Assembly: GCA_037039925.1 (NCBI GenBank)
Contig: JAXRKP010000359.1
Span: forward strand, 242,501 to 306,500
From: Doris montereyensis
Lineage: Eukaryota; Mollusca; Gastropoda; Nudibranchia; Dorididae
DNA: 64,000 nucleotides
Direction of reading: 5' to 3'
In this document: positions 1 to 59,326 of the stretch, piece by piece
How positions within the stretch are numbered: the first letter of the stretch is position 1
How the letters are laid out: the number at the start of each line of letters is the position of its first letter
Position numbers and translations under genes: made by a program
The notes under the pieces: generated by a model
What the model was told of the DNA's origin: nothing
The model's database searches: none
Seen by the model: the letters and a program-made list of their open reading frames with translations, nothing else

Positions 1-427
1 GAAATCAAACGAAGAAAACGTGGAAAAAGGGAGGTGTCAAAGAAAGAAATGGAAAGAGAGGTTTTAGACCCATGCTACCGTCTATCTTACTCGAAAGTGT
101 ACGTTCTATAAATAATAAATTAGATGAGTTTCACGGTCTTATCAAATTTGACAGCACGTTTTTGTACTAGCAGTATAATGTGTTTTTCGGAGATCTGGCT
201 CGACGATTCAATTAAAGACAGCTGTGTGGAAGTTCATGCCTTTGAGCTCTTCAGGGGGATAGAATGAAGGAATCGGGAAGAAGAAGGGAGGTGGAGTGTG
301 CCTACGTCAACAAGAGATGGTGTCACCCCAACAACGTGTCATTTCGCCACAGATCGTGCACTCCGACCGTCGAGATCCTGACTATCAACGCACACCCTTA
401 TTATTTACCCCGTGAACTTTCCATGTA

Positions 428-3372: not shown

Positions 3373-3457
3373 AAACTGGCCACTCCTGACAATGACAACA
3401 AAAGAATCAACATCAAGCCTCCAGCCAACAGCTACGGATCCAACCGAACTCGTGCTG
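3373..3457 (+). CDS. LRCH: Candidate LRCH exon upstream of the CH domain
   Basis: A possible 85-nt coding exon preceded by a good acceptor (pyrimidine-rich, TTGTTTCCATAG) and followed by a weak donor (CTG|GTGATG). Two of the three frames stay open. One reads KLATPDNDNKRINIKPPANS and onward, but it ends in phase 1. The other starts one base later, ends ESTSSLQPTATDPTELVL, and joins the exon at 6131 in phase. LRCH proteins have a low-complexity linker between the LRRs and the CH domain, which either peptide would suit. There is no conserved motif to settle it, so this could be a chance open segment. Confidence 0.3.
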
Positions 3458-6130: not shown

Positions 6131-6289
6131 CCTGTTTATGATGTTCAACAGACCGTGGAATCACGCCTTAAATTGACATTGCCAGACAATCTGGCAGAGG
6201 CCTTGCGAGATGGTGTCGTCCTGTGTCATCTAGCCAATCAAATCCGGCCTCGATCTGTCGGCAGCATACATGTCCCGTCTCCAGCAGTG
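6131..6289 (+). CDS. LRCH: LRCH, calponin-homology domain exon 1
   Basis: LRCH proteins carry N-terminal leucine-rich repeats and a C-terminal CH domain. They act as cytoskeleton- or membrane-linked scaffolds, for example with septins and DOCK-family exchange factors. This exon encodes 53 residues with the family's signature: SRLKLTLPDNLAEALRDG, VVLCHLANQIRPRSVGSIHV, then PSPAV. The acceptor is TGCAG before CCT and the donor is GTG|GTAAGT. Both ends are phase 0. An ATG lies at 6125 but inside the acceptor region, and the LRR exons are expected upstream, so it is not taken as the start. CpG and codon content differ from the surrounding AT-rich transposons, as expected for a host exon. Confidence 0.88.
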
Positions 6290-10141: not shown

Positions 10142-10521
10142 AGAAGTTCTACTCACAAACTTAGTAAAATGAAAATTAGCACAATCACAAAGCAACACTG
10201 TTCAGTGTAAAACAAAAGGCCAACCCATCTACCTGACTAAAGTGATAAAACAGGAAATCGTCAGTAATTGTAGCATCACCTACACACAGAAAACGATCAT
10301 TGGCATTAAAAAGGTTAGACAACACATAGCAGGTCCATCACACGAAGCAATTCTGAAACCAACACGCACATGAAATAAAGAAAAATAGCCCCTCTACAAA
10401 ACAAAACATATGTAAACAGGCAGGTGTTTCATGCAGGTTGCGTTTATCTTCTAGATTCGCTTTGGCCATGAAAGAAACTGTGGGGTTAACATGGTCTCAG
10501 GAAAGAGTGCTCCGATAATTC

Positions 10522-18260: not shown

Positions 18261-18726
18261 GAACAAGTTTCTTATCTTTCTTTACATTTTGAATCTGATC
18301 ATACACCTCCCGATTACTATAATTATATAAGACCAAACTGCCTATGACAGATTCTGGTGAGGACAGAAAAGGTTCAATATGCTTGAAAGCAACATCACTG
18401 CAGTGAAAACTATTACTGGCATTAGTATTAAAATTAAAATCCTTTTTGGAGGAAAAGACTTTGTTAAGTTCCCTAATGAGAGAACGTCTTTTTGACTCCT
18501 CCCGTTTAGAGGCCACTTCCAGTCTCCTTTCAGAAATGACCGTTTTAGTAGCCACTTCCTCCAGATTCTTTTTTTTTTTAGTAGCCACTTCCTCCAGATT
18601 CTTTTTATGGCGTTCAGTATGTGCCTGTCTCATAGCAAAGCTAATGAGAGATGTCTTCTGGGCACACTCCTTGGCATGAAGCCACTGAAGGGTCTTATTC
18701 ATCTTTGAACGGACTTTGCCGTTCAA
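18154..18726 (-). pseudogene. C-terminus of a decayed transposase-like protein
   Basis: On the minus strand, NGKVRSKMNKTLQWLHAKEC is followed by a Lys/Arg/Glu-rich coiled-coil segment. That segment includes a short tandem repeat KKNLEEVATK, seen as two near-identical nucleotide blocks (TAGTAGCCACTTCCTCCAGATTC). A C-terminal region follows. The arrangement (ASER..., NATIGFLNGK..., NKTLxWL, then coiled coil) matches a widespread multicopy invertebrate/fish family that I believe is transposon-derived but cannot name. The upstream part is the triplicated segment at 18704-19290, so the gene is broken. A host function is unlikely. Confidence 0.5.
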
Positions 18727-19290
18727 AAATCCAATTATGGCATTTGGCGCTCTCCTCCAAAGTCGATCGAGTGTCTCTCTGACGCAATGTTATCCGTAGG
18801 GGCAGAGGCTGCCTGATCCAACATCTCTGTTGATGGTCTAGAATATCGCCCGTCCACAAAGTCAGCAAGCTGCCGTGATAGAACAGACAATATGGACACT
18901 TTGAACGGACTTTGCCGTTCAAAATCCAATTGTGGCATTTGGCGCTCTCCTCCAAAGTCGATCGAGTGTCTCTCTGACGCAATGTTATGCGTAGGGGCAG
19001 AGGCTGCCTGATCCAACATCTCTGTTGATGGTCTAGAATATCGCCCGTCCACAAAGTCAGCAAGCTGCCGTGATAGAACAGACAATATGGACACTTTGAA
19101 CGGACTTTGCCGTTCAAAAATCCAATTGTGGCATTTGGCGCTCTCCTCCAAAGTCGATCGAGTGTCTCTCTGACGCAATGTTATGCGTAGGGGCAGAGGC
19201 TGCCTGATCCAACATCTCTGTTGATGGTCTAGAATATCGCCCGTCCACAAAGTCAGCAAGCTGCCGTGATAGAACAGACAATATGGACAG
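18704..19290 (-). repeat. 195-bp tandem repeat, three copies, hairpin at each junction
   Basis: Copies start at 18704, 18900 and 19095 (periods 196 and 195). They are nearly identical; variants include TTATCCGTAGG versus TTATGCGTAGG and one A indel. Each begins with the perfect inverted repeat TTGAACGG-ACTTTG-CCGTTCAA (18705-18726, 18901-18922, 19096-19117). On the minus strand the unit encodes VLSRQLADFVDGRYSRPSTE and AASAPTHNIASER. It then loses frame, so the copies are duplicated coding sequence of the transposase-like gene. Confidence 0.9.
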
Positions 19291-19476
19291 CATGACACTG
19301 ACAGACTCGGTGGCTCCTCGCTGAATATCCACCTCCTCTGTCTCGTAGAAGTAACAGCTGAGTGATAGCTGAGAGCACATCATCCAGGTCTGGGTCCAGC
19401 CTCTCTCCAAAAACATTACACTGGGGCTGGAGAAGAGCACCCACATCCACAACCCAAATCTGAAGTTGAGCCACAC
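19253..19476 (-). pseudogene. Upstream fragment of the same transposase-like gene
   Basis: Minus-strand frame with LQIWVVDVGALLQPQCNVFG and LDPDLDDVLSAITQLLL, leading into the triplicated block. No start or earlier domain is visible. The relationship to 18154-18726 is inferred from colinearity. Confidence 0.35.
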
Positions 19477-19529
19477 ACTTTTGAATAAGGTGTCCCTGTC
19501 ACACTGTCACTGTCAGGGGAAAAAATATA

Positions 19530-20970
19530 GAAATAATATAATGATCAATTGGTGGCCTTGGAAAAAGTTAATAAAAACTCAAAGAAAAAGGTCTGAAGTT
19601 AAGCTATTTAGATTTGAACGAGGTTTTCCCAGTTTGGGGGAGGGGGCAAAAAATATGATCCATTGGCAGCCTTAGAGTTAGAAAATGGAAAGGATGGTGA
19701 TATGGGCTGAAATTGAAAAGAAAAATTCTACTGGTCTGTCCCTTGAATAAAGAAAAAATGATGTTTGTTTTGTTAATGTCAATCGAACAACATTACAATA
19801 CATTCATAGAAATGGAACTACCGGTATGCTTAGAAATTAATAAGTCTGCTCCTATGGACAGTAAAAATTGAAATAGATTACACTTCATAATTTACTACAA
19901 CTAAGACAATTTAATCCTCATAATTATCAACTTAAAATTGAATAATTAATTTTGAACATAAAAATCCTAATTTTACCATTTCAAGATTTGATATGGTTGA
20001 GGAATAAAACTTTGTCATCCATGGCCCTGTAAAAGTCTTTCCTACGAGTGCAAGAGCCCACACTTGGGCCATGATCTTTTTGTTGTTAAGGTCCCTCAAG
20101 ATACTGGAACGAAGAAGTCCCGCTGGGAAATGAGAGAAAACAAAGGGGAAAGTTGAAATCAAAACATCGTTAAAATTATGGTGTCAATACAAGATTTCAG
20201 AATTGATCAAATGCTTTACCATCTGAATGTTCATCAAAACTAAAACTGTAGCCTACTACTACTACTTACTACTTACAACAAGACTAAACTAGAGCTGACA
20301 CTGACGTTATTGAGTAAATTGAGCACTTCCTTTTGGCCTTTTCTAAAGATACACTTCAAATAGCCGTCCTTCCTCTTGTCCAGATAACACGTGTCATCAT
20401 GACCATGTGAAATGGACCTGTTTGAGACTATTGAGAGATCAAAGTTCCTTTGTTGCTGGTCGCTGACCTCAGATGAAAGCTTCAATTTTCCCTTGTACTT
20501 TCAACACTCTAATTGTCTAATTTCTAATCCCTTCATTCCTTATGTGAAGGTAACACCCTCCCTTCAGGCTGACCTTAGGTGTGCAATGTGATTGGCCACT
20601 GATATCTTTTATTTATATCAATCACTATTTCTTGCTTGTGGATGGAGCTTGTTACTATACTATAATACTAAAGTAATTGACATCTGTCCAGAAGTTGCGT
20701 CGGTCATACGAAGACAAGAGTCTTTGGTTTTGTCCACTTTGCAGAGGGTCCACAGCCTGCATTTGAGATAGAGCTCCTGTGTGTTGTTGTATCTCTTTAT
20801 AAGAAATATATCGAGTGTGTGTTAGCCTCGGAAATGAACTATCACTTTTACCCCTTTAGAATAATAGACTTTCTCTGTTTGGCGTGCCATGGGTTGATCA
20901 GCGTAATTGGTCAGAATAGAGGCATTCCCAAAATCCGTCTTTGACTGAGTGCACTGCAGTGCAGTTATTT
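19530..20970. other. Unassigned sequence
   Basis: No gene recognised. Contains scattered short open frames without motifs. A palindrome GCACTGCAGTGC lies near 20950. Confidence 0.3.
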
Positions 20971-26581: not shown

Positions 26582-26659
26582 CCCAAACTGACACTCGCTA
26601 AATGTCGTCGCAACGTAGACAACTTCCTGGAGGCATGTCGGAAGATCGGGGTGGGAGCG
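26582..26659 (+). CDS. LRCH: LRCH, calponin-homology domain exon 2
   Basis: A 26-codon exon encoding PKLTLAKCRRNVDNFLEACR and KIGVGA, the central helix of the LRCH CH domain. It joins directly to VPSPAV of the previous exon. The acceptor is a strong pyrimidine tract (CATCTCCTCTCTGCCAG) and the donor GCG|GTAAGT. Both boundaries are phase 0, so it can splice in frame either to 44765 or to 55899. No stop or odd residue is seen. Confidence 0.9.
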
Positions 26660-34325: not shown

Positions 34326-35413
34326 CTAATACTTTAGCATTGAGGAGGGGTGTAAGAGGTCAAGATGGGTTCTAGTCTTTCTACCAAACATGAGTTCTGC
34401 TGGGGAGAGACCTGTAGTAGAGTGGGGAGTGGTCCTATATTTGGACAGGAATCTATACACTTTCTCTCTCATGCAACCAGGAGATAATTTTATCATGGAT
34501 TGTTTGAATGTTTGGACAGCTCTCTCTGCCAAACCGTTTGAGGAAGGATGGTATGGGGACACAGTGACATGTTTAATACCATTGAACAACATAAATTTAG
34601 CAAATTCATTACTAATCCATGTAGGACCATTGTCTGTAACAATTGTTATTGGTAATCCCATGGTGGAAAAAATGTCTCTTAGTTCTTGAATTGTTTCTGA
34701 TGCAGTTATCTTGTTCATAATTTTAACATCTATCCATTTTGCATGAGAGTATTTTTGAGAGTCAACTACAATAAGGAACATTTTACCCATGAACGGTCCT
34801 GCAAAATCCATATGAAGCCTGTTCCAAGGTTCAGTAGGCCATTCCCATGGAAGTAAAGGTAATTTGGAAGGCTCATTCTATGACTCTGACACGGATAGCA
34901 GATTTTCACGCTCCTCTCAATGTCTGCATCAATGTTTGGCCACCATACCCATGAGCGTGCAATAGATTTCATTCGCGCCACACCAACATGAGTATCATGA
35001 ATAATATCCAACACTTTTGAGCGCAATGACTCAGGAATCACAACACGCGTACCCCATGAGAATAAGAGGCAATCATATTCTAAACTTAATTCATTTCTAC
35101 GGCTAAAAAATGCACGAAGAGAAGAATCACATTTCTCAGGCCATCCCTGATATGTGTGTTGACGAACACTATTGAGTAGAGGATTGCATCTCGTCTCACG
35201 AGCGATATCAGCTGGTGTCACAGGGCAATTTGTGATAAAATTGAAGAGAGCGTCCACTTCTGCAGGATTGATGTTCACGTTGTCATCTGTTGTAGGAAGG
35301 GGAAGGCGGCTGAAGGCGTCAGCGTTGTTTTGTTTACCAGGTTGATATTCCAGTGTGTAGGAATACGCAGACAAGGTAAAGGCCCAATGTTGGACTCGCT
35401 GAGGCATGCTCAA
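34326..35413 (-). pseudogene. Gypsy RNase H end, integrase zinc-binding and core domains
   Basis: The frame 34766-35413 carries the RNase H end (SYTLEYQPGKQNNADAFSRL). The integrase HHCC zinc-binding domain follows (HDTHVGVARMKS ... CYPCQ). A frameshift near 34800 leads to the core 34326-34811. There the DDE acidic residues are visible as VVDSQ, VTDNGPTWIS and GLAERAVQTF, with the expected spacing. YRTTPHSTTGLSPAELMFGR ends the core. The enzyme would insert element DNA, leaving the 5-bp duplication seen here. Confidence 0.9.
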
Positions 35414-35789
35414 GAATTGGTTTGCCTTCTGCCAGAATGCCTAGGAGAGGCTTATGATCGGTGACAATCTTGATCCTCTGGCCAAGAATATACTTATGGA
35501 ATTTTTTAACACCAAAGTTAATACCTAAGGCTTCCCTATCGATTTGAGAATATTTCCTTTCAGCACATGAAAGTGATCTGCTAGCAAAATACACAGGCTT
35601 TTCAATGCCATCATTATCTATTTGACTAAGTACAGCACCTACTCCGACAGGCGAGGCATCACATGTAAGAAGTATCGGCCTTTTGGTATTGAAATGAGAT
35701 AGCACTTTATCAGATGAAAGAAGGCTTTTTGCTTTCAAGAGAGCTTTATCTTGTACGTTGCCCCAACACCAACGGGTGTTCTTGTGCAA
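35334..35789 (-). pseudogene. Gypsy RNase H domain
   Basis: LLTCDASPVGVGAVLSQIDN with the first catalytic Asp, then PVYFASRSLSCAERKYSQID with the REAL motif (catalytic Glu near IDREALG), and IVTDHKPLLGIL with a further Asp. Typical Gypsy RNase H following RT. Frame is lost at both ends. Confidence 0.9.
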
Positions 35790-36467
35790 TAAATCGTAGA
35801 GGGTGAAAGAATGGTGGAGCTCCCTGGGATGAATTTTGAGTAATGATTTATCAAGCCCAGGAACGAATGAAGCTCATGAATATTTCTTGGGCGAGGTGCA
35901 TCGACGATAGCTTTGACGGTGTCACCCAGATGACGGATTCCATCTTTGCTCAGCATGTGACCGAGGAAGGTGACCTCATTTCTCATGAACTCACACTTCT
36001 CCCGATTGATAGCTAGACCTTTCTTCCTGCATGTATCCAATACTTGTTCTAGATTTTTCATGTGGTCTTTGTCATCTTTTCCAGTGACTTAATAGGTCAT
36101 CAAAGTAGATCACTGTCATTGGAATGTGTAGAAATGTGCTCTCCATAGCACGCTGAAAAATACCAGGGGCAGAGGAGATTCCAAAGCATAGTCGCTGGTA
36201 CTGAAAAAGACCTTTATGGGTATTGATCATTGTTAACTTCCGAGATTCGGGATCTAGTTCAAGTTGTGTGTAGGCATTAGTAAAGTCCAATTTTGTGAAT
36301 TTTTGTCCACCGGCCAGCTGTTGTGCTAGGTCTTCAATTCGAGGAATAGGATGACTGTCACACTCAGCAGATTGATTGATTGTGCTTTTATAGTCCCCAC
36401 AAATTCTAATAGCTCCACTTTTCTTTAAGACAGGTACTATGGGTGTGGCCCAGTCTGAGAATTTCAC
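35735..36467 (-). pseudogene. Gypsy reverse transcriptase
   Basis: 36072-36467 carries RICGDYKSTINQSAECDSHP, FTKLDFTNAYTQLELDPESR with the first catalytic Asp, LCFGISSAPGIFQRAME, and the catalytic box VIYFDDLL. A frameshift just after this box leads to 35735-36061 with GLAINREKCEFMRNEVTFLG and LHSFLGLINHYSKFIP. All core blocks are recognisable. Upstream frame 36553-36783 is the N-terminal extension. Confidence 0.92.
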
Positions 36468-36894
36468 AGGTTTGATAATGTCCTCTTTTTCTAGTCTGGT
36501 AAGCTCTGTTTCAATACCCTCACGAAGGGCATATGGTGGTTGTCTTGCCTTTCTAAAAATGGGGCGAGTTTCCCGATTTCAGATGAATTTTGGCTGAAAA
36601 GTCTTGTAAGCACCCAGAAGAGTTGAAGACATCTTTGTACTGATCTACAACATTAGCTACCATCATGGAATCTTGCTCTTTAGTGTTACTAGTGTTAGCA
36701 TAAAGCTCATTGGAAAATAATTTGTTCCAACCTAATATGAGGTTTTCCACCAATTTCTGCCTAAAAGTGGTGGGCCTTTGCAAACAACAATGAGGAGAGG
36801 CAAAGTGAACTGTTGATCATCATATCTAACCAGTACTAATTTTTGCCAAAAAATAGGTACAGGTTTGACGTTTCAAGATTTTGTTTGACTTTTT

Positions 36895-44764: not shown

Positions 44765-44944
44765 AGGGAGCTGTGCGACCCTGATGACATCATCGAAGGC
44801 ATCAGATTGGTTCCTGTCTCTGAAACCGTCCAGCGATTGATGTCCTTTCGTCGTCTTGCACCCTCCGACTTCCACGCAGCCAATTTCTGCTTGTTCATTT
44901 TGAGCACCACTATGATAATAGTCTTTCTATACCCATTTGTATAA
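44765..44944 (+). CDS. LRCH: LRCH alternative last exon with membrane anchor
   Basis: A phase-0 terminal exon of 59 codons plus stop. The acceptor is TGTACTCTTGCAG after a CT-rich tract. RELCDPDDIIEGIRLVPVSE and TVQRLMSF complete the last helices of the CH domain after KIGVGA of exon 2. RRLAPSDFHAAN is a short linker, and FCLFILSTTMIIVFLYPFV is a 19-residue hydrophobic C-terminal segment ending at the stop. That is the layout of tail-anchored LRCH3/LRCH4-type proteins. No donor is needed. AATAAA follows at 45628. The alternative is the exon at 55899. Confidence 0.82.
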   Translation, partial: RELCDPDDIIEGIRLVPVSETVQRLMSFRRLAPSDFHAANFCLFILSTTMIIVFLYPFV

Positions 44945-46069
44945 ACTATTTGGACGATTATGTAGTGTGTTTATATTTTAATTGATTTGAAATTGAGAAT
45001 AAGTCTAATAAGTGTAGTATGGCATTATGTATCGTTACTGCTGGCTGCTATCTGTGCATGTAGCATTTGACAACTTTTGAGTGAGACCTAAAAATAATGA
45101 ATAATGGTTGATGGAAATGTTCACTGTCGCTAATTGAGCAATGAAGATTTTTTAAAAGTCATTTTCATTGAGTTGAATTCTCATGCAGACAGCAGGTACA
45201 GCTATTTTTAGATGTTTGAGAAAATACAGGTTTTTACAATACTGCTCCATATGCGGATGGCGATGGGCAGGGAAGATATGTACGCTGATCGAACTTGAAT
45301 TGATTTATCAACCTTTATCAGAACTTGAATCTCAAAGCAAGTTGATGATGGAGAAGTCGACAGAAGCGTTGTTGTCTGCTGTTTCCTAAAGATATATGAA
45401 TCTATAGTTAACTCTTTTATAGTAGAAAGATGCAACAAAATTTGTCAGCAGTCAAATTTTGAAATAGGCAGAGGTTTTTAATTTTTAACTGAACTGTACA
45501 AGTTTTAATGACCATCACAAATGGATGGGATTAACTGTAATATTGAAGGTTGCATTATTGAATTTATTTACTGCAGGATATTTTTTGCGAATTGTTATTG
45601 TTGAGAGTAATTATACACCTCTACTTAAATAAAATCTCAGATCTTCAACACCTTTTTGCATAGAAGATAAAATCATACCGGGACCAGAATTATTGATTAT
45701 TGTATGCCAGTTTTCTTATTCCTTCACTTAATCTATACAATCATTTTATCCAATTATATTATATAAACCTCTGTTCACCTCGTTATCCATTATGCTGATT
45801 TGGTCGGTGTTAAAATCTGTAACACACCATAAAGCTTTTATTATTTTGTAGACGTTCTTTGTTGAAGAAGAATAAAAGAAGAGAAAGGAGAGGTAAATCT
45901 GATATGAAGAATGTTTCGTCTCTTTACTATTTATTTCTTTGAATTTCTACACCCGTATTCATATTTTCTATTTAACTTGTAACACCCCCATCCCATCCCC
46001 ACGTCCACCGACTCTCCCTTATAGGAATCTAAATGTAATATATTATAAAGCACAAAATCAAAATTCTTT
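44945..46069 (+). other. Probable 3' UTR of the membrane form, then intron
   Basis: No other gene. Would carry the 3' UTR up to a polyadenylation site. AATAAA occurs at 45628-45633 and AATAAAAG near 45871. The extent is inferred. Confidence 0.4.
45628..45633 (+). terminator. LRCH: Candidate polyadenylation signal for the membrane form
   Basis: AATAAA about 685 bases after the stop at 44944, with T-rich sequence shortly after (CCTTTTTGC at 45651). Not proven to be used. Confidence 0.35.
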
Positions 46070-46138
46070 TTTCTTTCTTTATCAGTTCCTATTTCTACCT
46101 TCCTGTGTATGGGTTCAGAAGCCCGAGATGAACCTTCT

Positions 46139-46552
46139 TCAGGCTGCCCTGTCCTGGCATTTTCTGTTTCCTTCCAAAAAAGTTAAATTTCTTTGCTTTA
46201 ATGCCTCTTTTATATCTTCTTCCCACTTTCTCCGAGGTCTGCCTTTTGGTCTTTTACTTTGGTTTTCTGACTTAGCTATTCTATTGTCATTCATTCTCTT
46301 TACATGCCCAAACCATCTAAGTTGATTCATTTCTATCTTAGTTATAATGCCATCTGCTTTGGTTTGATCTCTTATTGTTGTGTTTCTGATTTTGTCTCTT
46401 TTAATTTTCCCTACTGCTCTTCTTAGATATTTCATTTCAGCAGCTTGTATTCTACTGTATTCTCTACTGTCAAAGGTCCAGGTTTCACTGCCATGGAGGA
46501 GAGTAGGACAATAAACTGTGTTGTATACTGTCATTTTGGTTTTTGTTGACAA
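46139..46552 (-). pseudogene. RTE-like LINE C-terminal domain (copy C)
   Basis: A 137-residue open segment containing [40 protein letters not shown] and the motifs LRWFGHVKRM and RPKGRPRRKWEEDI. This is the conserved end of RTE-group polyproteins after the RT thumb. It is the most intact copy of this region in the window. Confidence 0.85.
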
Positions 46553-48451
46553 TTCTTGTTTATCTATAAATGTCTTTTCTTTTGGATTCTCTGGCTGATT
46601 TCTTCTCTTAGTTTTCCTCTGAGTTAATCATTACTCCTAGGCAATTCTAGCTTTGAATTTGTTCTAAATTCTCCTGCCCAATTTAAGATCTTCAAGTGGT
46701 TTAGCTTCCCTAATTACTAGCATTTTTTGGGTTTTCTTTGCTCTTTTCTTTAATTCATTATTCATCAAGTTGATATTAGACTGAAGGTCACTTTCTGATT
46801 TTCCAAACAGAACTAAATCATCAGCAAATGAAAACATTGATACATTTACTGGTTTGAGCTTCCACATACCTACATTCAGTTTCTTCATTTTTGAGGATGC
46901 CTTTGTGATTGAATCCATGAATGTGATAAACAAAAGAGGACTTAGGATACAAACCCTGTTTTACTCCTATATCTACATCAAATTCTTCAGATATGTTTCC
47001 AGCTACTCTCTCTGCACATGTTGGTTTATTGTAAAAACTTGTAATGGCTTCTATTAAATTTTGCTCTTCATTGTGTTCTTTTTAAAGAATGCCATAGTTC
47101 GTTCCTCCTCAGTGTCAAATGTTTTTTCTAAGTAACTAAAACCAATAAAACACAGGTGCAAATCAATGTTTCTCTCAAGGAATATTTGTATTATATGTCT
47201 AATTATGAATATGTGGTCTTTTACACTTCTTCCTGGTCTTAATCCACTCTGATGTTCTTTAATCTGATCCTCTACTCTTGTCCTTAGTCTCATTTCAGAA
47301 TCCTAGCATACACTTTTCCTGGTACGCTAAGTAGTGATATCCTCTATAGTTTGAGTATTCCATAGTTGATCCTTTCTTGTGTATTGGTACTACCAGTTCC
47401 TTTTTCCAGCCATCCGCAACCTTGTTGGCCTTTCCTAATTTCACTTTCACTTTTCTTATAGCTGTTTGGAGTTCTTCCATCTTCCATCTTCAACTGTCTC
47501 ATCTGGATTACTTGTTACTCTTACTTATTGATCCGTACTCCTTGTTTCATATGTTCTGGAGGGATTATGTAATTGTTGAAAATACTTTCTAAATGTTTTC
47601 ATGATTTGGCTGTCTTCTTTCATTCTTTCCCTTTTGGTGTTCTCAATTTGTCGTATTGGGCATGCTTTATACGTTCTCATGCTCTTCATTGCACCCCAGA
47701 ACAGCTTTTGATTTCCTTGATAGCTTTCTTGAAGTCTTTGTCCAAACACTTCCCATTTTTCCTGTTTTTCTTTCCTCACTTCTTCTTTGGCGATAGTTCT
47801 TTTACTCATGTAATCTATCCTATCCTCTGGCCTCTTTGTTTACAAGTATTTCTTTCAGGCATCTTTCTTTTCTTTGATCTTAGTCTTGACATTCTCATTC
47901 CACCATGCTGTTCTTTTCCTACCTCCTTTAATTTGGTTCATTGCACCAAGCTGTTCTTTTCCTATGTCCTTTAAGTTGATTCCTACCACAGACCTCTTCA
48001 GCACAACTGAGGAGTGTTTTTTTTATTATACATTTGCCACTTTCTTCTACTGTGCTATCATTCATATCCACCTGCCTTTCACAGATAAATCTTTTTATCC
48101 TAGATACGTATATCTGTTTTATTATTGGTTTATTTAGTTTTCCTATTTTGAGTTTTGTAGCTTTTTCTCTGGTTACTCTTGCATCCATTGTATTGTAAAA
48201 AGGGAGCTGCTAACTGTCTATGACTTTTCACATCTGTCTTCATTTACCCTTGTATAGTTGTGGATATGAGGAAAAAAGGTGTTGGCTATTTCATGTTATT
48301 CTTTAGACAAAAATCTATTAGTCTCTCCATTTGAAGAAGTTGTCTCTCCTTCTTTACCTATCACTCCTGACGTTTCTACATTGTAGCCTACTCTAGCGTT
48401 TAAATCTCCCTTAAACCATTACTTTCTGTTTGAGTTTGAGATTCTCTGCAG

Positions 48452-48766
48452 CTATTTGTAAATCTTTTTCAAAAATATCGTTTTCTTTTTGGTTGCGTCT
48501 TCGTTTGGTCCATAAGCTATTATTAATTTAATTTCTCTTCCTCTTGGTTTAATATTTACCTCTAATAGCAGTGGGCTTATAAATTTCCAACTTTGTAGTA
48601 TCGTTTCATGCCTTTTATGTATTAGGAGGCCTACTCCTGCTCTAGCTCTATCTTTGACATCTACTCCTGAGAAGATTAAAATATGATTTGGTCCTACCTT
48701 TTCTATTCCTTGTCCTTTTTTCTTTGCCTCTGTAATGGCCAAAATGTCTATTTTGAATTTTTCCAT
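48452..48766 (-). pseudogene. RTE-like LINE endonuclease (copy C)
   Basis: MEKFKIDILAITEAKKKGQG includes the position of the catalytic Glu (ITEAK). FSGVDVKDRARAGVGLLIHK, then LLEVNIKPRGREIKLIIAYG with the following PNED. Apurinic/apyrimidinic-type nuclease that nicks target DNA. The upstream GTWNVRAIN-type start is partly readable at 48770-48830 in another frame. Confidence 0.85.
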
Positions 48767-49140
48767 TTTTTCAGCTAATTTTATCTCTTTTCTGTTAATT
48801 GCCCTAATATTCCATGTTCCAAAAATCAGTCCGTGCTCGTTTCCATGTTCGTCTTCGAAAGGTCAAGCCGGGTATATTGTATATTGTGTTTATTTCTCTG
48901 CATCAGTTGATTTTGGATAAGCAGGTTATTGGCCCACTATATCCTAGGTATATGATAGGGCTGTCACCTTAAGGCCCCCTACCAGGCCTTGTTATTTTCT
49001 GTCAGGGTTAACTCCCTTAGCCTGCCCAAAACCAGCCTGCAAGGCAGCAGGAGTCTCGAAGAGGGCGGGACCGTCTAATCCCCGTACAGGTGTTCACCTG
49101 TCCACTGCCCGGACAATATCAAAATGACTCTGGCTGCCAA

Positions 49141-49208
49141 TGTGTCTGTCTCTGTCTCTGTTTACCTCTCTTTCTCTCTATCTCTCTGTCTCTCTCACTC
49201 TGTCTGTC

Positions 49209-49290
<82 letters not shown>

Positions 49291-49325
49291 TCTCTCCTCT
49301 CTCCTCTCAGTCGTCTCTCTCTCAC
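49141..49325 (+). repeat. CT/CTGT microsatellite
   Basis: TCTG-type repeats pass into (CT)n, then CTCTCCTCT variants. It lies 50 bp beyond the 5' end of LINE copy C, the same association as at 4506-5235. Confidence 0.95.
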
Positions 49326-50464
49326 TCTGCATTTGGATTTTTTTGTTATGAGTGAACCATATTTGAAATGTGATATAATTTGATAGCCTTTTACTTTATA
49401 TTTTATTGACTTGTGTGCATTAATTGTGTTCACACCTCCAGTTTTGTTGTGATTTGAATAAAGTAGTTTCTTTCTGGATTATTTACTTCAACCTATACAA
49501 AATGGGAAGTTTGACCTGAAGACCTGCAACACTTGAAAGTTTTCCATTATTGTTGTTATAATCTTTACATTACAACATTCTGTTTCTGCAATCATAAGAT
49601 ATTTTAAAATTTTATGTTAATTTATCATGTTGCTGCAAAATTGTGTTTGCATGCAATCTTGTGTGTTTAAGGGTTTTAAAAAAAAAGTAATAACACAGAT
49701 GTTTTCCATTATATTTTATGTACAAGCCTCTGATGAACTGGTGCGCATAAGATTTATTATCGGGTGGGTGGGATGGGGGGCACCACCATTTCTTTCACCT
49801 TTGCCACTATATTATGTTCTTCATTTGTTCTGTCTGGTTACAGGATGATTCAGGCGTGATGTTGGTTTCTGCTTTACTTTCTTTCTGTTACATGTGTCTT
49901 TCATCACACGTTTTCCTTTTTATTTGCTCTGCGATCACCGCTTATGGTGATCTCAATAACCTGACAAGTTACAGTCGTATGCGATGTCAAATTGTTATCT
50001 GGGATTCAATTTTTATGACATGTAATGTTTGGTTGGTCCTTGGCTGGGAATTCTTTACCTCTTTGACGTTTATTTCATATTGCTGTCTCATTTTGATTCA
50101 TCCTGAGGTGAGCAAATATGGTGGACGGGGTAAATTACGATGAAACAGGAGGAGTATGGGATACGTAATATGTGATGAATAATCTCTATCCTGTTCTGAC
50201 AATAGTATCGGTCATCTTTATAATAATATGTAATGTATGTAGAGTCTAACCATTAAATTATATGTGATAATACAAGTGTCTACAATTTTTAATGGTATAC
50301 CACGGCTGTGTTTTATTGCTAATGCTGTAAGATACATCTTTCAATGACTGTATATATTTGACAATGTGATAAAAGTTCTAAAATATCCCTTTATGTTATG
50401 TAGAATTATGCTTTGCTCCATGTCATGTACAAGAGTTAACAATTTCCAGTTGTTAATGTGTTTT
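49326..50464. other. Spacer between head-to-head LINEs
   Basis: No gene. GCGATCACCGCTTATGGTGA at 49931 is a near-palindromic version of the dispersed motif, and TCCTGAGGTGAGCAAATATG at 50101 a second copy. Confidence 0.45.
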
Positions 50465-50510
50465 GCATTGTTTGTGCTGGGGAGTAGATGATCCCGCCCT
50501 CCACGAGTCT

Positions 50511-50645
50511 CCTGTTGCCTTGCAGGCAGGTCTTTGCTGACCAAAGGCTAAGGGAGTTAACCCTGAAAGAAAACAACCTGCTGCCTTGCAGGCCGGTCTT
50601 GAATGACTAAAGGCTAAGGGAGTTAACCCTGAGAGAAAATAACAA
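50511..50645 (+). repeat. Two 66-bp 5' UTR monomers of the RTE-like LINE
   Basis: CCTGTTGCCTTGCAGGCAGG (50511) and CCTGCTGCCTTGCAGGCCGG (50577) each lead to GGCTAAGGGAGTTAACCCTG. Copy C carries one such unit. Confidence 0.85.
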
Positions 50646-50804
50646 GGCCCGATAGGGGGGCCTCAAAGTGGCAGCCCCACCATCTACCTAGGGTACAGTG
50701 GGCTAATCCCCTGCTTATGCAAAACAACATGATTCAAAGTAACATATATAATGATATACCTGGCTTGAACTTTCAAGACGACTGGAAGGAAAAGAACAAG
50801 GACT

Positions 50805-51254
50805 GTGATTTTTGGAACATGGAATGTTAGGGCAATTAATGGAAAGGAGTTAGAATTAGCTGAAGAAATGGAAAAATTCAAAGTAGACATTTTAGCTATT
50901 ACAGAAACAAAGAAAAAAGGACAAGGAATAGAAAATGTAGGACCAAATCATATTTTAATCTTCTCAGGAGTAGATGTCAAAGATAGAATTAGAGCAGGAA
51001 TAGGCCTCCTAATGCATAAAAGGCAAGAAATGCTACTAGAAATTTTGAAATTTGTAAGCTCACGGCTATTAGAGGTAAATATTAAACCAAAAGGAAGAGA
51101 AATTAAATTATTAATAGCTTATGGACCAAACGAAGATGCCACCAAAGAAGAAAAAGATATCTTCGAAAATGATTTTAAAATAGTTGCACAGAATCTCAAA
51201 CCCTTGAAACAGAAATTCATGGTTTTGCTAAGTTTTAGGAGATTTAAATGCTAG
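50805..51254 (+). pseudogene. RTE-like LINE endonuclease (copy D)
   Basis: MIFGTWNVRAINGKELELAE has the metal-binding Asn of this nuclease family. DILAITETKKKGQG carries the catalytic Glu, followed by DVKDRIRAGIGLLMHKRQEM and LLIAYGPNEDATKEEKDIF. The frame is lost near 51230. The continuation GDLNARVGN-like (near 51240) and CEKPMIDYIMV (near 51435) lie in the next frame. Confidence 0.88.
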
Positions 51255-51460
51255 AGTAGGCAACAATGTAGAAACATCAGGAGGAGTAATAGGTAGAGAA
51301 GGAGAGACAACAACTTCTCCAAATGGAGAGAGACTAATAGATTTTTGCCTAAAGAATAACATGAAAATAGCTAACACATTTTTTCCTCATAAAGATATAC
51401 ACAAATATACAGGAGTAAATGAAGACAGATGTGAAAAGCCAATGATAGACTACATAATGG

Positions 51461-51606
51461 TTAGTAGCTCCCTTTTTTACAGTACAATGGATGCTAGAGT
51501 AAGCAGAGGAGCTGAAATATTTAGTGATAATAGTTAGCAGCTCCCTTTTTTACAGTACAATGGATGCTAGAGTAAGCAGAGGAGCTGAAATATTTAGTGA
51601 TCATCA
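51461..51606 (+). repeat. 73-bp tandem duplication in LINE copy D
   Basis: The block TTAGTAGCTCCCTTTTTTAC begins at 51461 and recurs almost unchanged at 51534. Because 73 is not a multiple of three, it shifts the frame. It is absent from copies B and C. Confidence 0.9.
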
Positions 51607-52141
51607 CCTAGTGATAGCCAAAATGAGATTATTAACTGAAGAAAACAAACAGAAAAGGGAAGAGAAGAAAGCTACTAAACTCAAAATAGAAGAACTAAAT
51701 AAACCAATGGTAAAACAAATGTACCAATCCAGGATAAAAAGATCTATCAGTGTAAGGCAGATGGATTTGAAGGAAAGCACAATAGAAGAAAAGTGGCAAA
51801 TATATAAAGAAACACTCCTCAGTTGAACTGAAGTGATCTGTGGTAGGAAACAAATTAAAGGAGATATGAAAAGAACAGCATGGTGGAATGAGAATGTCAA
51901 GACTAAGATCAAAGAAAAGAAAGATGCCTGGAAGAAATACTTGCAAACAAAGAGAGCAGAGGATAGGATAGATTGCCTGAATAAAAGAACTATCGCCAAA
52001 GAGGAAGTTAGGAAAGCAAAACAGGAACAGTGGGAAGACTTGGACAAAGACTTCAAGAAAGCTATCAAGGAAATCGAAAGCTGTTCTGGGAGCAATGAAG
52101 AGCATGAGAAAGACCAAAGCATGCCCAATACGACAAATTAA
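51524..52141 (+). pseudogene. RTE-like LINE linker region (copy D)
   Basis: Frames 51524-51826 and 51833-52141: MRLLTEENKQKREEKKATKL, YQSRIKRSISVRQMDLKEST, then RTAWWNENVKTKIKEKKDAW and EEVRKAKQEQWEDLDKDFKK. Basic helical region between nuclease and RT. Confidence 0.75.
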
Positions 52142-52599
52142 GAATGCCAAAGGAGAAATAATGAAAGGAGATAGCGAAATTATGGAAACGTAGAGGAAGT
52201 ATTGTCAACAATTACATAATCCCTCAGGAACATATGAAACAAGGAGTAAAGATCAATTATTAAGAGTAACAAGTAATCGAGATGAGACAGCTGAAAATGT
52301 AGATATCTCAATGGAAGAACTTCAAACAGGTATAAGAAAAGTGAAATTAGGAAAAGCCCCAGGAGCAGATCAAGTTTATCCAGAAATGATTGAAAACCAA
52401 GGAGAGAGGCAGACAAACTACTACATGCAATATGTCAAGAAGCATGGAAGTCCAAAAGGTGCCAGACGAAAAAGGGAACGGTAGTACCAATACATAAGAA
52501 AGGATCAACTATGGAATGCTCAAACTATAGAGGGATATCACTACTTAGGGTACCAGGAAAAGTGTATGCTAGGATTCTGGAAATGAGACTAAGAAAAGA

Positions 52600-53173
52600 G
52601 TAGAGGATCAGATTGAAGAGCATCAGAGTGGATTTAGACCAGAAAGAAGTGTACAAGACCACATTTTACAATTAGACAAATAATAGAAACATTCCTTGAG
52701 AGAAACATTGACTTGCACCTGTGTTTTATTGACTTAGAAAAGGCATTTGACACTGAGGAGGGACAAACTATGGCATTCCTTAAAAGCACAATGTAGAGCA
52801 AAACTTAATAGAAGCCATTAAAAGTTTTTACAATAAACCAACATGTGTAGTGAGAGTAGCTGTAAATGTATCTGAAGAATTTGATGTAGATATAGGAGTA
52901 AGACAGTGTTATATCGTAAGTCCTCTTTTGTTTATCACATTTATGGATTCAGTCGCAAAGGCATCCTCAAACATAAAGAAACTGAATGTAGGTATGTGGA
53001 AGCTCAAACCAATAAATGTATCAATACTTTCATTTGCTGATGATTTAATTCTGTTTGGAAAATCAGAAAGGGACCTCCAGTCAAATATCAACATAATGAA
53101 CAATGAATTAAATAAAAGAGGAATGAGAGTAAATGCAAAGAAAACCAAAACAATGCTAGTAACAAAATCTTAA
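52600..53173 (+). pseudogene. RTE-like LINE reverse transcriptase (copy D)
   Basis: 52610-52760 holds a HQSGFRP.RSVQDHI block and DLHLCFIDLEKAFDT with the first catalytic Asp, across frameshifts. 52850-53173 is open with VSEEFDVDIGVRQCYIVSPL (the usual QGC is QCY), LFITFMDSVAKASS, SILSFADDLILFGKSERDLQ with the catalytic FADD, and RGMRVNAKKTKTMLV. The C-terminal domain follows in broken form to 53690. Confidence 0.88.
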
Positions 53174-53815
53174 ATTAGGCAGGGAGAATTTAGAACCAGT
53201 TTAAAGCTACAATTACTTAGGAGTAATGATTAAATCAGAGGGAAAACTAAGAGAAGAAATCAGCCAGGGAATCCAAAAGGCAAATGTAATAGAAAGGCAT
53301 TTGTAGGTAAACAAGAATTGTTGTCAACAAAAACCAAAATGGCAGTATACAACACAGTTTATTGTCCTACTCTCCTCTATGGCAGTGAAACGTGGACCTT
53401 AGACAATAGGGACTACAGTAGAGTGCAGGCAGTCAAAATGAAATATCTAAGAAGTAGGGAAAACTAAAAGAGACAAAATCAGAAACACAACAATAAGAGA
53501 TCAAAACAAAGCAGATAGCATAAAAACTAAGATAGAAATGAATCAACTGAGATGGTTTGGGCATGTTAACAGAATGAATGACATTAGCATAGCTAAATCA
53601 GTATACAGTGCTAAAACTTGAGGTAAAAGACCAAAAGGCAGACCTCGGAGAGAGTGGGAAGAAGATATAAAAGAGGCATTAACGCAAAGAAATTAAACTT
53701 TCCCCGGAAGAAAACAGAAAATGTCAGGACAGGGCAGCCTGGAGAAAGATCATTTCGGGCATCTAAAACCCATACACCAGAAGGTAGAATGGGAACTGAT
53801 AAAGAAAGAGAAAGC

Positions 53816-54020
53816 ATTGTTTGTGGTGTCCGTAACTTACCGGACTTCAGGTTGTGAGGTTCTGGGTTCGAATCTTGCCAATGCTTGGTCTGACATTGTT
53901 CTTCCCTGGAAGGACACTTAACATGCCATTCCCCATTCTTGCACATGCATAGCAGCACAAACGGGGGAGGAATCCGCCATAGACTAGCGTCTTGTAATGG
54001 CCTTAAAACAACTTTTTGTG
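53816..54020 (+). mobile_element. tRNA-derived SINE at the 3' end of LINE copy D
   Basis: GGTTCTGGGTTCGAATCTTG carries a B box (GGTTCGAATCT). Downstream body AGACTAGCGTCTTGTAATGG matches the SINE at 6340. It abuts the LINE tail directly. Confidence 0.65.
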
Positions 54021-54223
54021 TTGTTTTTCTCTTTTTTGGGTGTGCACACGCACGTCTTTGACTCATCGTAAGTTGTGAACATTCATAGAATATTCGGCCT
54101 TTGTATGTGATGTGTACATAAGATTTTGAGTTGATTTAGATCTACTTTTCAGTTTGGTTGATGTATATGCCATGGCTGTGAATGAAACAGTTTTTTCTTC
54201 CATTCAACATTCCGTTGGTAACT

Positions 54224-54500
54224 GATGATAATAATAATAATAACACTTTATTCATCCAATGAAGGAAATTACATTATGTTCCTCATAAATAAGTTTAAAA
54301 ATCATAATACATATTCATAATTAAAATTGCTAAACATTAATGCAGTAATATAATAAGAGTATTAGTATGACAAGTACATCACAAAAATGCATAAGATATA
54401 CAACCTCCCCCCTTACCCACACACACACACACACAACCGACCCCCTCACACACGCCTCGGTCAAAGCTCATTCATCCATGCTCATCCCCCCACTGCCATT
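54224..54500 (-). mobile_element. CR1/Rex1-like LINE 3' end, truncated
   Basis: On the minus strand it ends GGATGAATAAAGTGTTATTATT, as does the element at 1-3020. It includes GGATGAATGAGCTTTGACCG and a GT-rich tract. Only the 3' UTR is present. Confidence 0.85.
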
Positions 54501-55898
54501 GGTTTTTGGATGTGACAGTTTATGTAATCTACAATATTCTTGCACCAGATTGTCTGCTTTTTGTATGAAATATCTATGATTTCCTGTTTGTCTTCCAAAA
54601 ATATAACTTTGTTTTGTTTTTTAAAGCCTGCAAATCATTTGTTCGGAAAATATGAGTTGTTGTTAATTTTGACATTGTTCTGGGTATCTTAGTTGAAAAT
54701 ATATTACGTTAAAAAGAGATTTGTAAGGAAATTAATAGGATTGTGCTAATCATCAAAACTTCGATAACAAGAAAAGAAAAGAAGAAAAAAATAAGAACTA
54801 GAAAATATTGATATCGATTAATGATGATGACAGGTTTGCAGGTTATTATTTCTTCAGATAAACGCAGCTAGTCTTCCATTTTTTGTATTCTTAGCTAAGA
54901 TTAATATTAATTATTAGCACTAACATTTGTTATAGATACCTCTATTTTATTTCTGTAGTCATAGCTGCCAATCAGTAGGTATAAAATGTATTTAGTACGT
55001 TTTTTTGGCTTTGAGTCCACAAGTTTGTATTTACCTTGAAAAGTGTGATATGAGGGTTAACTGTAAGTTTTGTTTAAAGAAACCCTAAGTCAATGGTAGA
55101 GACTGCAAGAGATGGGGATGAAAGTATTGAGACACCATTCTGAGTTCACAAAACTACTGTCACATTTCACCGGAAAGACCGACTGTTGATAGACTTTTTG
55201 TTATTTAACTTAAAGGGAGTAAATTCAAGAAGTTAAACTATCAATGTCTTCTACAATATTGCAAAGCATCGTGCAAGTTAGAATTAGTTTGCATGGTAAG
55301 AGTTGATTGGCAGCTACGTGTAGATGAATTCAAGTAGTGTTATGGAATTGTACATTTTGATGTTTTGTGAGAAGTATTTTGTATAACAATCATATTCATT
55401 TATTTATACTGGATGAGTTTATTGTATAAATATACAATATAAACAATATGTTTGTCCAAGTGTGTAGCAGTGAATAGGCTTAAACCAAACAATTACGTAT
55501 TTGACAGCCCTGATATTTTGATCATATATATGTTAAGCCAATGTCATCAGTTTTTCGGATGTTGGTTGGTTGGTTGTGTGATCTGTTTCTTCTTCTTCTT
55601 CTTTAGACTAACTCAATTCTTGAGTATTACTGTCAGTGCACATGATTATGAATTTAATCATGGTTAATCAAATTTTGATTGTGAAAAAGAAAATGTTATG
55701 ATGTTTTTCATAACATAACCTTTAAACAGAATTTATGTCCATTTTTCTCTCTTTTATCTCTTGAAATAAAACAACATCAAGACAAAAGAACAAAAAGCAA
55801 CCAAAACAAAACAATACCGAAAAACATTAAGAAAAACATAAAAGGTCACACCATGTATATTTTTTCACACTTTTTCGTCCCTGCGTGTCATATTCTAG
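54501..55898. other. Intron sequence before the soluble-tail exon
   Basis: AT-rich, no gene or transposon recognised. The last 40 bases are pyrimidine-rich and supply the acceptor TCATATTCTAG. Confidence 0.4.
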
Positions 55899-56012
55899 GA
55901 ACAAATCTGTGGAGCCCAGGACATCTTTGAGGAGAAGGGCATCTCTCGTGTGGCCATCACGGTGGCCGCCCTAGTCGCCATAGGAACCAACCCCAAGCAG
56001 TCGGCAGTTTGA
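55899..56012 (+). CDS. LRCH: LRCH alternative last exon with soluble tail
   Basis: A phase-0 terminal exon of 37 codons plus stop after TCATATTCTAG. EQICGAQDIFEEKGISRVAI and TVAALVAIG complete the last helices of the CH domain. The tail TNPKQSAV follows and then TGA. There is no hydrophobic anchor. It follows KIGVGA of exon 2 in frame, exactly as exon 44765 does, so the two are alternatives. Its sequence (C..QDI.EEKG...VA.TV.AL) is the more CH-typical of the two, resembling soluble LRCH1/2-type ends. An opposite-strand open frame over this exon is a shadow. Confidence 0.86.
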   Translation, partial: EQICGAQDIFEEKGISRVAITVAALVAIGTNPKQSAV

Positions 56013-56490: not shown

Positions 56491-57245
56491 TTATTTTATA
56501 CAATATTATATCAAGCAACAAGTGGACACAATGCCTAAAAGAAGTAGAATATCAGGTCTCCGCCGGGACCCAATGTATGTTTACCTCCCTTCTAACCTTC
56601 TTGTTATCTAACCCGTCAATAATGCCAAACTTTGAACAGAAATTATTTTTACTTTATAGTATTGTTTGTGTTTGAAATTTTGGTTAGACAGCAAAAAAGA
56701 AGAAGCATGTTTTAAAAAATTAATTCCATGCTTTGTTCAATTGTATAATATATGTGATCATTATATAAAGGATTCAGGTCTTATCATTTCAAACTTGGCA
56801 TCAAAGAATGAGAAAAGAAAGATAAGGTAAAACAATAATTTAAAGAATAAGAAATAACAGAAGTGACTTTCTTTTCTTTTTTTGCGTAACAAGTTTTTTT
56901 TAAAGAAAAGAAATATTTTTAAAAATTAAAATTTTAAGTTATAACTGATTTGCTTGTGGTTAAGGAAAATAGACATAAAAAAGTTTCGTATGTATTGAAT
57001 TGATTTGCATTAAAAAAGAAAAAGAAATGTTCAAAATTTCTCTTCCAACACCACTTGTGCTCTCTTCTGTTTTTGACCTTTGCCCTTTTGTTTAACCCTA
57101 ACTTGTGTCTCTCACACATTCTTCATTGAGACTTTGCTTACTTAGTTAAGTTAAGAAAGAAAAAAAACCCAGATAAAAGGGGCCTTTACATAAATGGAAA
57201 GGGTAAAGAAAGGATAAATTGCAAATGAGAAGAAAACCTTACCCA

Positions 57246-57251
57246 AATAAA
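57246..57251 (+). terminator. LRCH: Candidate polyadenylation signal for the soluble form
   Basis: AATAAA about 1.2 kb after the stop at 56012. Usage unproven, and no clear T/GT-rich element directly follows. Confidence 0.25.
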
Positions 57252-57633
57252 ATGAAAACACTAAAAAAGACCCATGAAACCCCAGCGACCCGAAATGAAA
57301 TACGTAGCACAAAGGAGCCAAAGTTGAAAGAAATTAAAAATGATAATGACAATACGTGACAACTCCACCAGGAAGACTGAAGAAACGTGGAGATACGGGT
57401 ATGACCCTTCGTCAGACAACAAGTGAGGAATATCTACACACTCACACAGTGTGATGTCAGAAGGAAAAACAGAAAGGAAGAAGAAAAAAGGGATAGTACT
57501 AGAGAGGAGAAGAATCAAGAAAGAATAGACAGTGAGGCACACCTCTCTCTCTTTCTTTTTGTCTACTTTCTCTGTTTCTAGATGGAAATTTCCTATTTTT
57601 TTATCTTTTCTTTTACCCTTTCACTTTTCCTAT

Positions 57634-58038
57634 CTACCCTGTTCCTTTTTCATCATCATTTGTGGCTTGCGCTATGCAACACGTGGCTGACATTTTTCTG
57701 TCTTCAGCACTTCTTGTAAAATCCAAGTTGGTGGTGATATCGGACGTGTTTTGTCTTAATGCCGTTACGTTTGTGGTGCGTTGTCTGCCACAAGCTCTTG
57801 TCCCTTCTATGAATCTAGATGTTGCTAGTTTTTCTATTCTTTTTGTCTCCACATATGGCCAAAACATCTCATTTGCCTTTTCTTGTCGTTCTCCGTAGGT
57901 TTTCTTGTTTTTCCAATTTTCACTAGAACTTCCATGTTTGTTACTCTTGCTGTCCATGGGATTTTCAATATTCTTCTATATATCCACATTTCAAATGCTT
58001 CTAAACAATTGCGACATTGTGCATCTAAAGTCCACGTT
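57634..58038 (-). pseudogene. C-terminal part of a LINE relic
   Basis: Minus-strand sequence with RQEKANEMFWPYVETKRIEK and LATSRFIEGTRACGRQRTTN, resembling the GHV.R....L....EGKR.GRQR block at the end of LINE polyproteins. The preceding part, FRSIWNVDI (near 57980), lies next to the nested insertion. Confidence 0.55.
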
Positions 58039-59326
58039 CAGACCTGCCAACTTTCTCAGGGACAAAATAGAGAAAATGAATATTTTGAATCGTGACATGT
58101 CAATCGATTCACATTTGCAATAACGGACGGTGCACCCTATGCTATCGCAGTTGTTTTTGTGCGACCATAAGCAAATTTCTTAGCGATTTTTGAATCTGGG
58201 CACATTTTTCTTACTCTTCTTAACAGAGTCCCAAACTGATTACTAACCGAGACAGGCAAGTTTTTCTCAAAATAAATTTTGTCCATAAAACCTCTGCTCT
58301 AATCATAGAGCAATCTCTGTCCTTGGTCATGAGCCACTGATATTCCTACTGGATAGACTGCTGTCCTTAACTGCAGTAGCATGCTTTGCAGTTTTCACAT
58401 GTTTTCTGATGTCATCCTTGCCACCACTGGCAATGCTAACATCTAAACCACAAGGTGTACAATGTGCAAAGCTCTCCCCTTTCACAGAAGGTTTAATGCA
58501 TGGCCATTCCTTCCTATGTCCCTCCCAAAATTTAACACTTGGTTTAGGTTTCTTGCTTGGTTGAGAACTATTAGTATTACAACTAGATCTAGAGGTAGGT
58601 TCCAGTTCCACATCTTCTGAATGTTCTATTTCCAAAGGCCTTTTTTTTTTCAGAAATCGATCCATGCCCAATTCGAAATTCGAGATGAAACGTTTATATT
58701 ATCTAGGTCTAGATCTCAGTTGTAGAGCCTAGAATTCCCATTTTAGACATGGTAAATTATAAAAACAGTAGTAAAGTAATTAATAAATCAGGATTGAATA
58801 AATCCAAAACGAAGGTAAAACTAATAAAAAATATAATCCAGGTAAGATTCGAAGAAAACAGACGCAATCAAGAAAGCGCACTAGATATAGAAATAATATA
58901 AGTCAGTCATCAGCTTCATAAACAAAGGAAAGAGACAAACTGTGAAACAATAATAATAGACTGTATGTAAATGATTACAATTTAAACCCGGCAAAGCGAA
59001 AGCAGTTTCTAGCCAAACAGCATTAATAGGTGAATATCGAGTACTCAAAATCACTGAATGTAATCTACGATTACTATCAATAAAACTATTTTTATTTAGT
59101 ATCGAACCAAAAAGGTTTTATTGTCTTCGATTATTTCTACCAAGTACAATTCTAAGCTTAATACTTAGTAGAGCTTAGTAGAAATTATAATTTGCAACTT
59201 TCTTCTCCAAAATAATTTTTCGCTCTCGAGAACAAAATATCGGGAAAATTGCGGCCACATCGGGAATAGGGGTTCCAAATCGGGAATTTCCCGATTAAAT
59301 GGGGAAATTTGGCAGGTCTGCACGTT
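58033..59326 (-). mobile_element. CAG...CTG DNA transposon with 6-bp target duplication, second
   Basis: Element 58039-59320 (1282 bp). Perfect 12-bp inverted ends CAGACCTGCCAA and TTGGCAGGTCTG. Flanked by CACGTT at 58033-58038 and 59321-59326. Inside the right end is a palindrome AATCGGGAATTTCCCGATT (59279 onward). It encodes only a zinc-finger domain. Same design as 11335-12498 but with different end sequences. Confidence 0.88.
58327..58671 (-). pseudogene. BED-like zinc-finger fragment of a transposase
   Basis: 114 open codons. Basic start MGMDRFLKKKRPLEIEHSED and a Ser-rich linker, then KFWEGHRKEWPCIKPSVKGE and SFAHCTPCGLDVSIASGGKD, then DIRKHVKTAKHATAV. This gives C-x2-C and H-x5-H spacing typical of BED-like fingers at the N-terminus of hAT-like transposases. 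It ends at a stop with no catalytic domain, so it could only bind DNA. Confidence 0.7.

What the first reader, a model, noticed from the sequence alone, without database searches (positions are those of the whole stretch)
44765..56012. One LRCH gene with two alternative last exons: membrane-anchored versus soluble
Both 44765-44944 and 55899-56012 begin in phase 0 after good acceptors, both complete the same last helices of the CH domain after KIGVGA, and both end in a stop. One adds a 19-residue hydrophobic C-terminus; the other ends in a short polar tail. In vertebrates these two kinds of C-terminus are, as I recall, associated with different paralogues (LRCH3/4-type anchored, LRCH1/2-type soluble). 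A single invertebrate locus that offers both by exon choice would mean the ancestral gene did this and the paralogues later partitioned it.
Basis: partly seen in the sequence, partly recalled or inferred. Interest (0 to 1): 0.75.

Follow-up and report, generated by a model that had tools for sequence, protein, structure and literature searches.

The report
Gene with membrane and soluble endings
A single LRCH gene in this animal carries two different last exons that both complete the same CH domain, one ending in a stretch predicted to anchor the protein in a membrane and the other predicted to leave it soluble, so the cell likely chooses between the two forms by splicing, a choice already reported inside mammalian LRCH genes.

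Summary
Exons A (44765-44944) and B (55899-56012) both follow the shared CH-domain exon 26582-26659 in phase 0. Each raises the Pfam CH score of the shared part (40.3 bits; 48.9 with A, 52.4 with B) and ends in a stop. A ends in a hydrophobic 19-mer at the extreme C-terminus. Against 1849 AG-started open frames, A and B complete the CH domain best, apart from frames of the upstream CH exon itself. A has no usable donor before its stop. LRR exons and a first exon without a hydrophobic start lie upstream on the same strand: an LRCH gene of about 154 kb. The core exon was found once in the assembly.

A review reports isoforms with and without TM inside single mammalian genes (LRCH1, LRCH4; a predicted TM in the longest LRCH3 isoform). 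So the endings were not simply shared out among paralogues, and 'LRCH1 is soluble' is contradicted. This is a known kind of isoform choice in a new genome. Ancestral origin is plausible but untested: the protein searches failed, and no RNA data were available. The A form is predicted to be tail-anchored, with LRR and CH in the cytosol, unlike the extracellular placement suggested for TM forms.

The parts
3373..3457 (+). possible linker exon of the same gene (uncertain; frame and phase not settled)
   Evidence: open in two frames after ccatag, donor CTG|GTGATG at the 94.6th percentile of GT sites; in the frame KLATPDNDNKRINIKPP.. it ends one base past a codon and does not fit the phase-0 start of the next exon
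6131..6289 (+). first CH exon, PVYDVQQTVESRL..DGVVLCHLANQIRPRSVGSIHVPSPAV, donor GTG|GTAAGT
   Evidence: translation and Pfam CH; donor at the 99.9th percentile; its acceptor is weak (pyrimidine fraction 0.5), so its 5' edge is uncertain
26582..26659 (+). shared core CH exon, PKLTLAKCRRNVDNFLEACRKIGVGA, donor GCG|GTAAGT
   Evidence: translation, acceptor 97th and donor 99.9th percentile; found once in the assembly
44765..44944 (+). alternative last exon A: end of CH domain plus C-terminal hydrophobic segment, stop at 44942-44944
55899..56012 (+). alternative last exon B: end of CH domain plus short polar tail, stop at 56010-56012

Best explanation
The window holds the 3' end of a single LRCH gene whose shared CH exon (26582-26659) is followed by two last exons, A and B, each completing the CH domain; the pre-mRNA is likely spliced either to A, predicted to give a membrane-anchored protein, or past A to B, predicted to give a soluble one. 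Shown by sequence: both exons, their phase, CH fit and stops, the lack of a usable donor inside A, LRR exons upstream on the same strand, and a single core exon found in the assembly. Inferred: that both exons are used; that A carries its own poly(A) site in the 11 kb before B; that form A is a tail-anchored protein (no hydrophobic start, and the hydrophobic segment is the last thing translated), placing LRR and CH on the cytosolic side as a membrane-bound cortical or endomembrane scaffold; and that form B is a free cytosolic scaffold with the same LRR and a slightly different last CH helix.
For: Phase, frames and stops. CH score gains of 8.6 (A) and 12.1 bits (B). Ranks 2 and 4 in the null of 1849 frames, beaten or split only by frames of the gene's own CH exon. 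Alignment of the A end with calponin, alpha-PIX and Vav-3 and of the B end with calponin and Vav. No donor in A above -2.9, against +5.5 for the two donors upstream. LRR exons upstream, same strand. First exon opens hydrophilic: best 19-mer -0.55. Exon GC 0.467 (A) and 0.57 (B) against 0.368 for the window. The same pair of isoform kinds is reported in single mammalian genes (PMC7536344).
Against: No transcript data. A scored alone is not distinguished (9th of 1452), and its hydrophobic end is matched by 7 other frames of 419. A's GC is not exceptional (10% of tiles are as high). AATAAA signals after A are at chance frequency. Single-base frame breaks in two shared upstream exons are read as assembly errors, but decay of the gene is not strictly excluded. 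The genome-wide searches with A and with the first CH exon did not complete. A published reading puts LRR and CH of TM forms outside the cell.
Confidence: 0.8

Rival explanations
1. Only B is used; A is a relic of a former last exon, or an open frame that is no longer spliced.
For: No transcript data; A scores less than B on every test.
Against: A is open for 59 codons in the one phase that fits, ends in a hydrophobic segment of full membrane-spanning length, has an acceptor as good as B's, and stands 11 SD above the frames of the null when joined to the shared part.
Confidence: 0.12
2. A is an internal exon: an alternative donor before its stop joins it to B.
For: Ten GT dinucleotides lie in A.
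Against: All ten score -2.9 or lower; the best (44772) would put B out of frame, and the five in phase score -6.5 to -10.3, against +5.5 for the donors upstream. Use of a later one would also duplicate the last CH helices.
Confidence: 0.03
3. A and B belong to two tandem LRCH genes, or were brought together by misassembly.
For: They lie 11 kb apart between transposon pieces; only part of the contig was read and some stretches upstream are withheld.
Against: No second core or first CH exon between A and B or elsewhere in the window (tblastn); the core exon is found once in the assembly (only the best candidates are scored); the window has no gap.
Confidence: 0.04

Closest known systems
Mammalian LRCH1, LRCH3 and LRCH4 isoforms with and without a C-terminal transmembrane segment (review PMC7536344, section 4 read; the LRCH4 work of Aloor et al. 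2019 is not held and known to me only through it)
   Same: One gene, LRR plus C-terminal CH, isoforms that differ by a TM at the very C-terminus.
Drosophila dLRCH (CG6860), PMC2923620, abstract and passages seen
   Same: A single LRCH gene; the protein has N-terminal LRR and a C-terminal CH domain and acts at the cell cortex.
   Different: The words isoform, splic and transmembrane do not occur in the held text, so two ends are not reported there; whether the fly gene has them was not tested.
Calponin, Vav and PIX single (type 3) CH domains in solved structures
   Same: Both ends align as the last helices of this fold.
   Different: No LRR and no TM end in these chains as aligned; similarity of domain only.

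Membership tests
LRCH family | a C-terminal calponin homology domain | tested here: met
   Pfam PF00307 52.4 bits (with B) and 48.9 bits (with A), cut-off 26
LRCH family | N-terminal leucine-rich repeats in the same gene | tested here: met
   LRR exons at contig about 152.7, 158.9, 171.5 and 174.3 kb, same strand; LRR_8 E 2e-13 on the four exon peptides typed as one string. That they are spliced to the CH exons is inferred; exons between 174.5 and 245.9 kb were not worked out
LRCH family | direct sequence kinship with named LRCH proteins | tested here: inconclusive
   the protein searches failed; resemblance to LRCH exons is recalled, and the LRR plus CH combination is said to occur only in LRCH proteins (PMC7536344)
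alternative last exons | two exons after one donor, same phase, each with a stop, first one without a donor | tested here: met
alternative last exons | transcripts ending in each exon | not testable with these tools
   no RNA data on hand
tail-anchored membrane proteins | a hydrophobic segment at the extreme C-terminus | tested here: met
   FCLFILSTTMIIVFLYPFV, KD 2.31, ends at the last residue; 8 of 419 comparable frames reach 2.3
tail-anchored membrane proteins | no N-terminal signal peptide | tested here: met
   first 29 residues from the first ATG of the exon at contig about 144.81 kb, up to a frame break: best 19-mer KD -0.55. Hydropathy only; an alternative first exon is not excluded
tail-anchored membrane proteins | insertion with N-terminus in the cytosol | not testable with these tools
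   needs an experiment

The most novel reading that the evidence does not exclude
A pair of last CH exons, one tail-anchoring and one soluble, is an ancient splice switch of LRCH genes that predates the vertebrate paralogues and was kept inside several of them rather than shared out; the anchored form is a cytosol-facing tail-anchored scaffold, so the model of TM-bearing LRCH as an outside sensor would need revision.
Probability: 0.4. Interest if true: 0.6.

Novelty: new member of a known kind. Interest (0 to 1): 0.38.

Why it matters
If an animal with one LRCH gene has the same two last exons, the membrane/soluble choice is older than the vertebrate duplications. Such an animal would let the questions left open in the review (how forms with and without TM differ, and at which membrane the TM form works; PMC7536344, section 15 read) be tested without redundant paralogues. 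The predicted cytosolic topology also questions the extracellular placement suggested for TM forms.

Tried and rejected
Considered and rejected or set low: A as an internal exon; tandem genes; chance open frames; a third last exon (no other + strand frame stands out); paralogue partition. Left open: that A and B are duplicated exons. Their local score of 32 is reached by 14 of 5000 shuffles, but unrelated frames of the window score 33 against A and 32 against B. A first control on hydrophobic ends (0 of 413) used a cut-off of 2.4 that A itself does not reach; one search replaces it. In one search the acceptor of the first CH exon was scored at a wrong base and that value is not used.

No help: Rfam at gathering scores on the window and by E-value on 18500-19600 and tRNA: nothing. 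Viral contigs and genome-contig scans: 14 and 69 pattern matches, no relative. Paper searches: LRCH with 'tail-anchored', 1 paper, where the match is a plasmid name; with 'mollusc', 3 papers, listing only; with 'alternative last exon', none; two searches gave general papers, listing only. Aloor et al. 2019 is not held. Also seen in passages only, without bearing on the ends: PMC5891429, PMC8785530, PMC5481333 (LRCH3 exon skipping between LRR and CH), PMC9653400.

Full report
OBSERVATION. Exon 26582-26659 encodes PKLTLAKCRRNVDNFLEACRKIGVGA and ends in the donor GCG|GTAAGT. Exon A, 44765-44944, encodes RELCDPDDIIEGIRLVPVSETVQRLMSFRRLAPSDFHAANFCLFILSTTMIIVFLYPFV and a stop. Exon B, 55899-56012, encodes EQICGAQDIFEEKGISRVAITVAALVAIGTNPKQSAV and a stop. 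Both start in phase 0. Under an approximate matrix the acceptors of A and B are at the 94.5th and 93.8th percentile of AG sites in the window and the donor at the 99.9th.

BETTER THAN CHANCE. Pfam CH gives 40.3 bits for the shared part, 48.9 with A and 52.4 with B. The shared part was joined to each of 1849 AG-started 30-codon open frames of both strands and scored against an HMM of five solved CH domains. Ranks 1 and 3 are frames of its own upstream CH exon; B is 2nd (60.7) and A 4th (55.5). The other frames average 42.5, SD 1.15. The best unrelated frame, on the minus strand at 44045, reaches 52.4. Without the shared part, B is 3rd and A 9th of the 1452 frames reported, so A's fit depends on its context. 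Against solved structures, the A form aligns to its CH end with calponin, alpha-PIX and Vav-3, the B form with calponin and Vav.

THE ENDS. A's last 19 residues average 2.31 on the Kyte-Doolittle scale. That alone is not rare: 8 of 419 comparable open frames reach 2.3, A included. What tells is its combination with a CH completion in the right phase. B ends in a short tail; its best 19-mer, 1.29, lies in the last CH helix. The A and B parts look alike (C..xDI.E...V..TV..L), with 14 of 5000 shuffles as good, but unrelated frames of the window score as high, so kinship of the two exons is open.

A IS TERMINAL. All ten GT sites before A's stop score -2.9 or lower; the best is out of phase for B, and the five in phase score -6.5 to -10.3, against +5.5 for the two donors upstream. 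AATAAA lies at 45628, 45871 and 46510 after A, and ATTAAA or AATAAA at 56925-58271 after B; AATAAA occurs 0.94 times per kb in the window, so this says little.

THE GENE. The window is 242501-306500 of a 341-kb contig in a 513-Mb assembly. The one answered search of that assembly, with core plus B, gave two matches, both in this window. Searches with A and with the first CH exon did not complete. Upstream on the same strand are LRR exons at about 152.7, 158.9, 171.5 and 174.3 kb (LRR_8 E 2e-13) and a first exon at about 144.8 kb with a hydrophilic start. From there to the stop of B is 153.7 kb. LRR plus CH in one protein is said to occur only in LRCH proteins (PMC7536344, passages). The exons between 174.5 kb and the window were not worked out, and the stretches 207.5-225.0 and 240.0-242.5 kb are withheld. 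Single-base frame breaks show in the first exon and in the 152.7-kb exon, and one is possible at the 5' edge of the exon 6131-6289. In the 152.7-kb exon the reading after the break fits the phase of the next exon, so I take them as assembly errors; that is an inference. Neither last exon shows one.

HOW IT LIKELY WORKS. One donor faces two terminal acceptors, 18 and 29 kb away. Splicing to A, with poly(A) addition in the following 11 kb, would give the anchored form; skipping A would give the soluble form. Since no hydrophobic start is seen and the hydrophobic segment is the last thing made, the A form is predicted to be tail-anchored, with LRR and CH in the cytosol. The review suggests extracellular LRR and CH for TM forms (section 4), and two other papers call that part of LRCH4 an ectodomain (PMC7240100 and PMC9653400, passages); both cite work I could not read.

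WHAT IS KNOWN. The review says that two of three human LRCH1 isoforms and the longest human and mouse LRCH4 isoforms have a putative TM, that the longest human LRCH3 isoform is predicted to have one, and that mouse LRCH4 isoforms with and without TM were compared. For LRCH2 I saw no statement either way. The fly paper describes one gene; isoform, splic and transmembrane do not occur in its held text (PMC2923620). The exons here could not be aligned with those of any other animal. I make no claim that the invertebrate switch is unpublished.

VERDICT. A real and well-formed pair of alternative last exons and a known kind of isoform choice, here in a gene found once in its genome. Its use and its age remain to be shown.

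Noticed in passing
416-2155 (+): Open frame with a reverse transcriptase domain (RVT_1, E 2e-24), a LINE-like element within the LRCH gene.
   Followed up: no
34329-36578 (-): Pieces of a retrotransposon inside the 18-kb intron, on the opposite strand: RVT_1, RNase H, integrase zinc-binding and integrase core in four frames.
   Followed up: no
10519-10944 (+): Frame matching DUF1280 (E 2e-09) in the intron between the two shared CH exons.
   Followed up: no
18703-19289 (-): Three tandem copies of a 196-base unit, 98% alike, with a weak look of a small RNA 3' end; no Rfam match even by E-value.
   Followed up: partly
contig C2790 about 144.9 and 152.8 kb (L012, L011): Single-base frame breaks in the first exon and in an LRR exon of the same gene, likely assembly errors; they would make automatic gene models of this locus wrong.
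   Followed up: partly
45055: A TGCATG hexamer (RBFOX-type site, recalled) 111 bases after the stop of exon A; 21 such hexamers in the window, so it may be chance.
   Followed up: no
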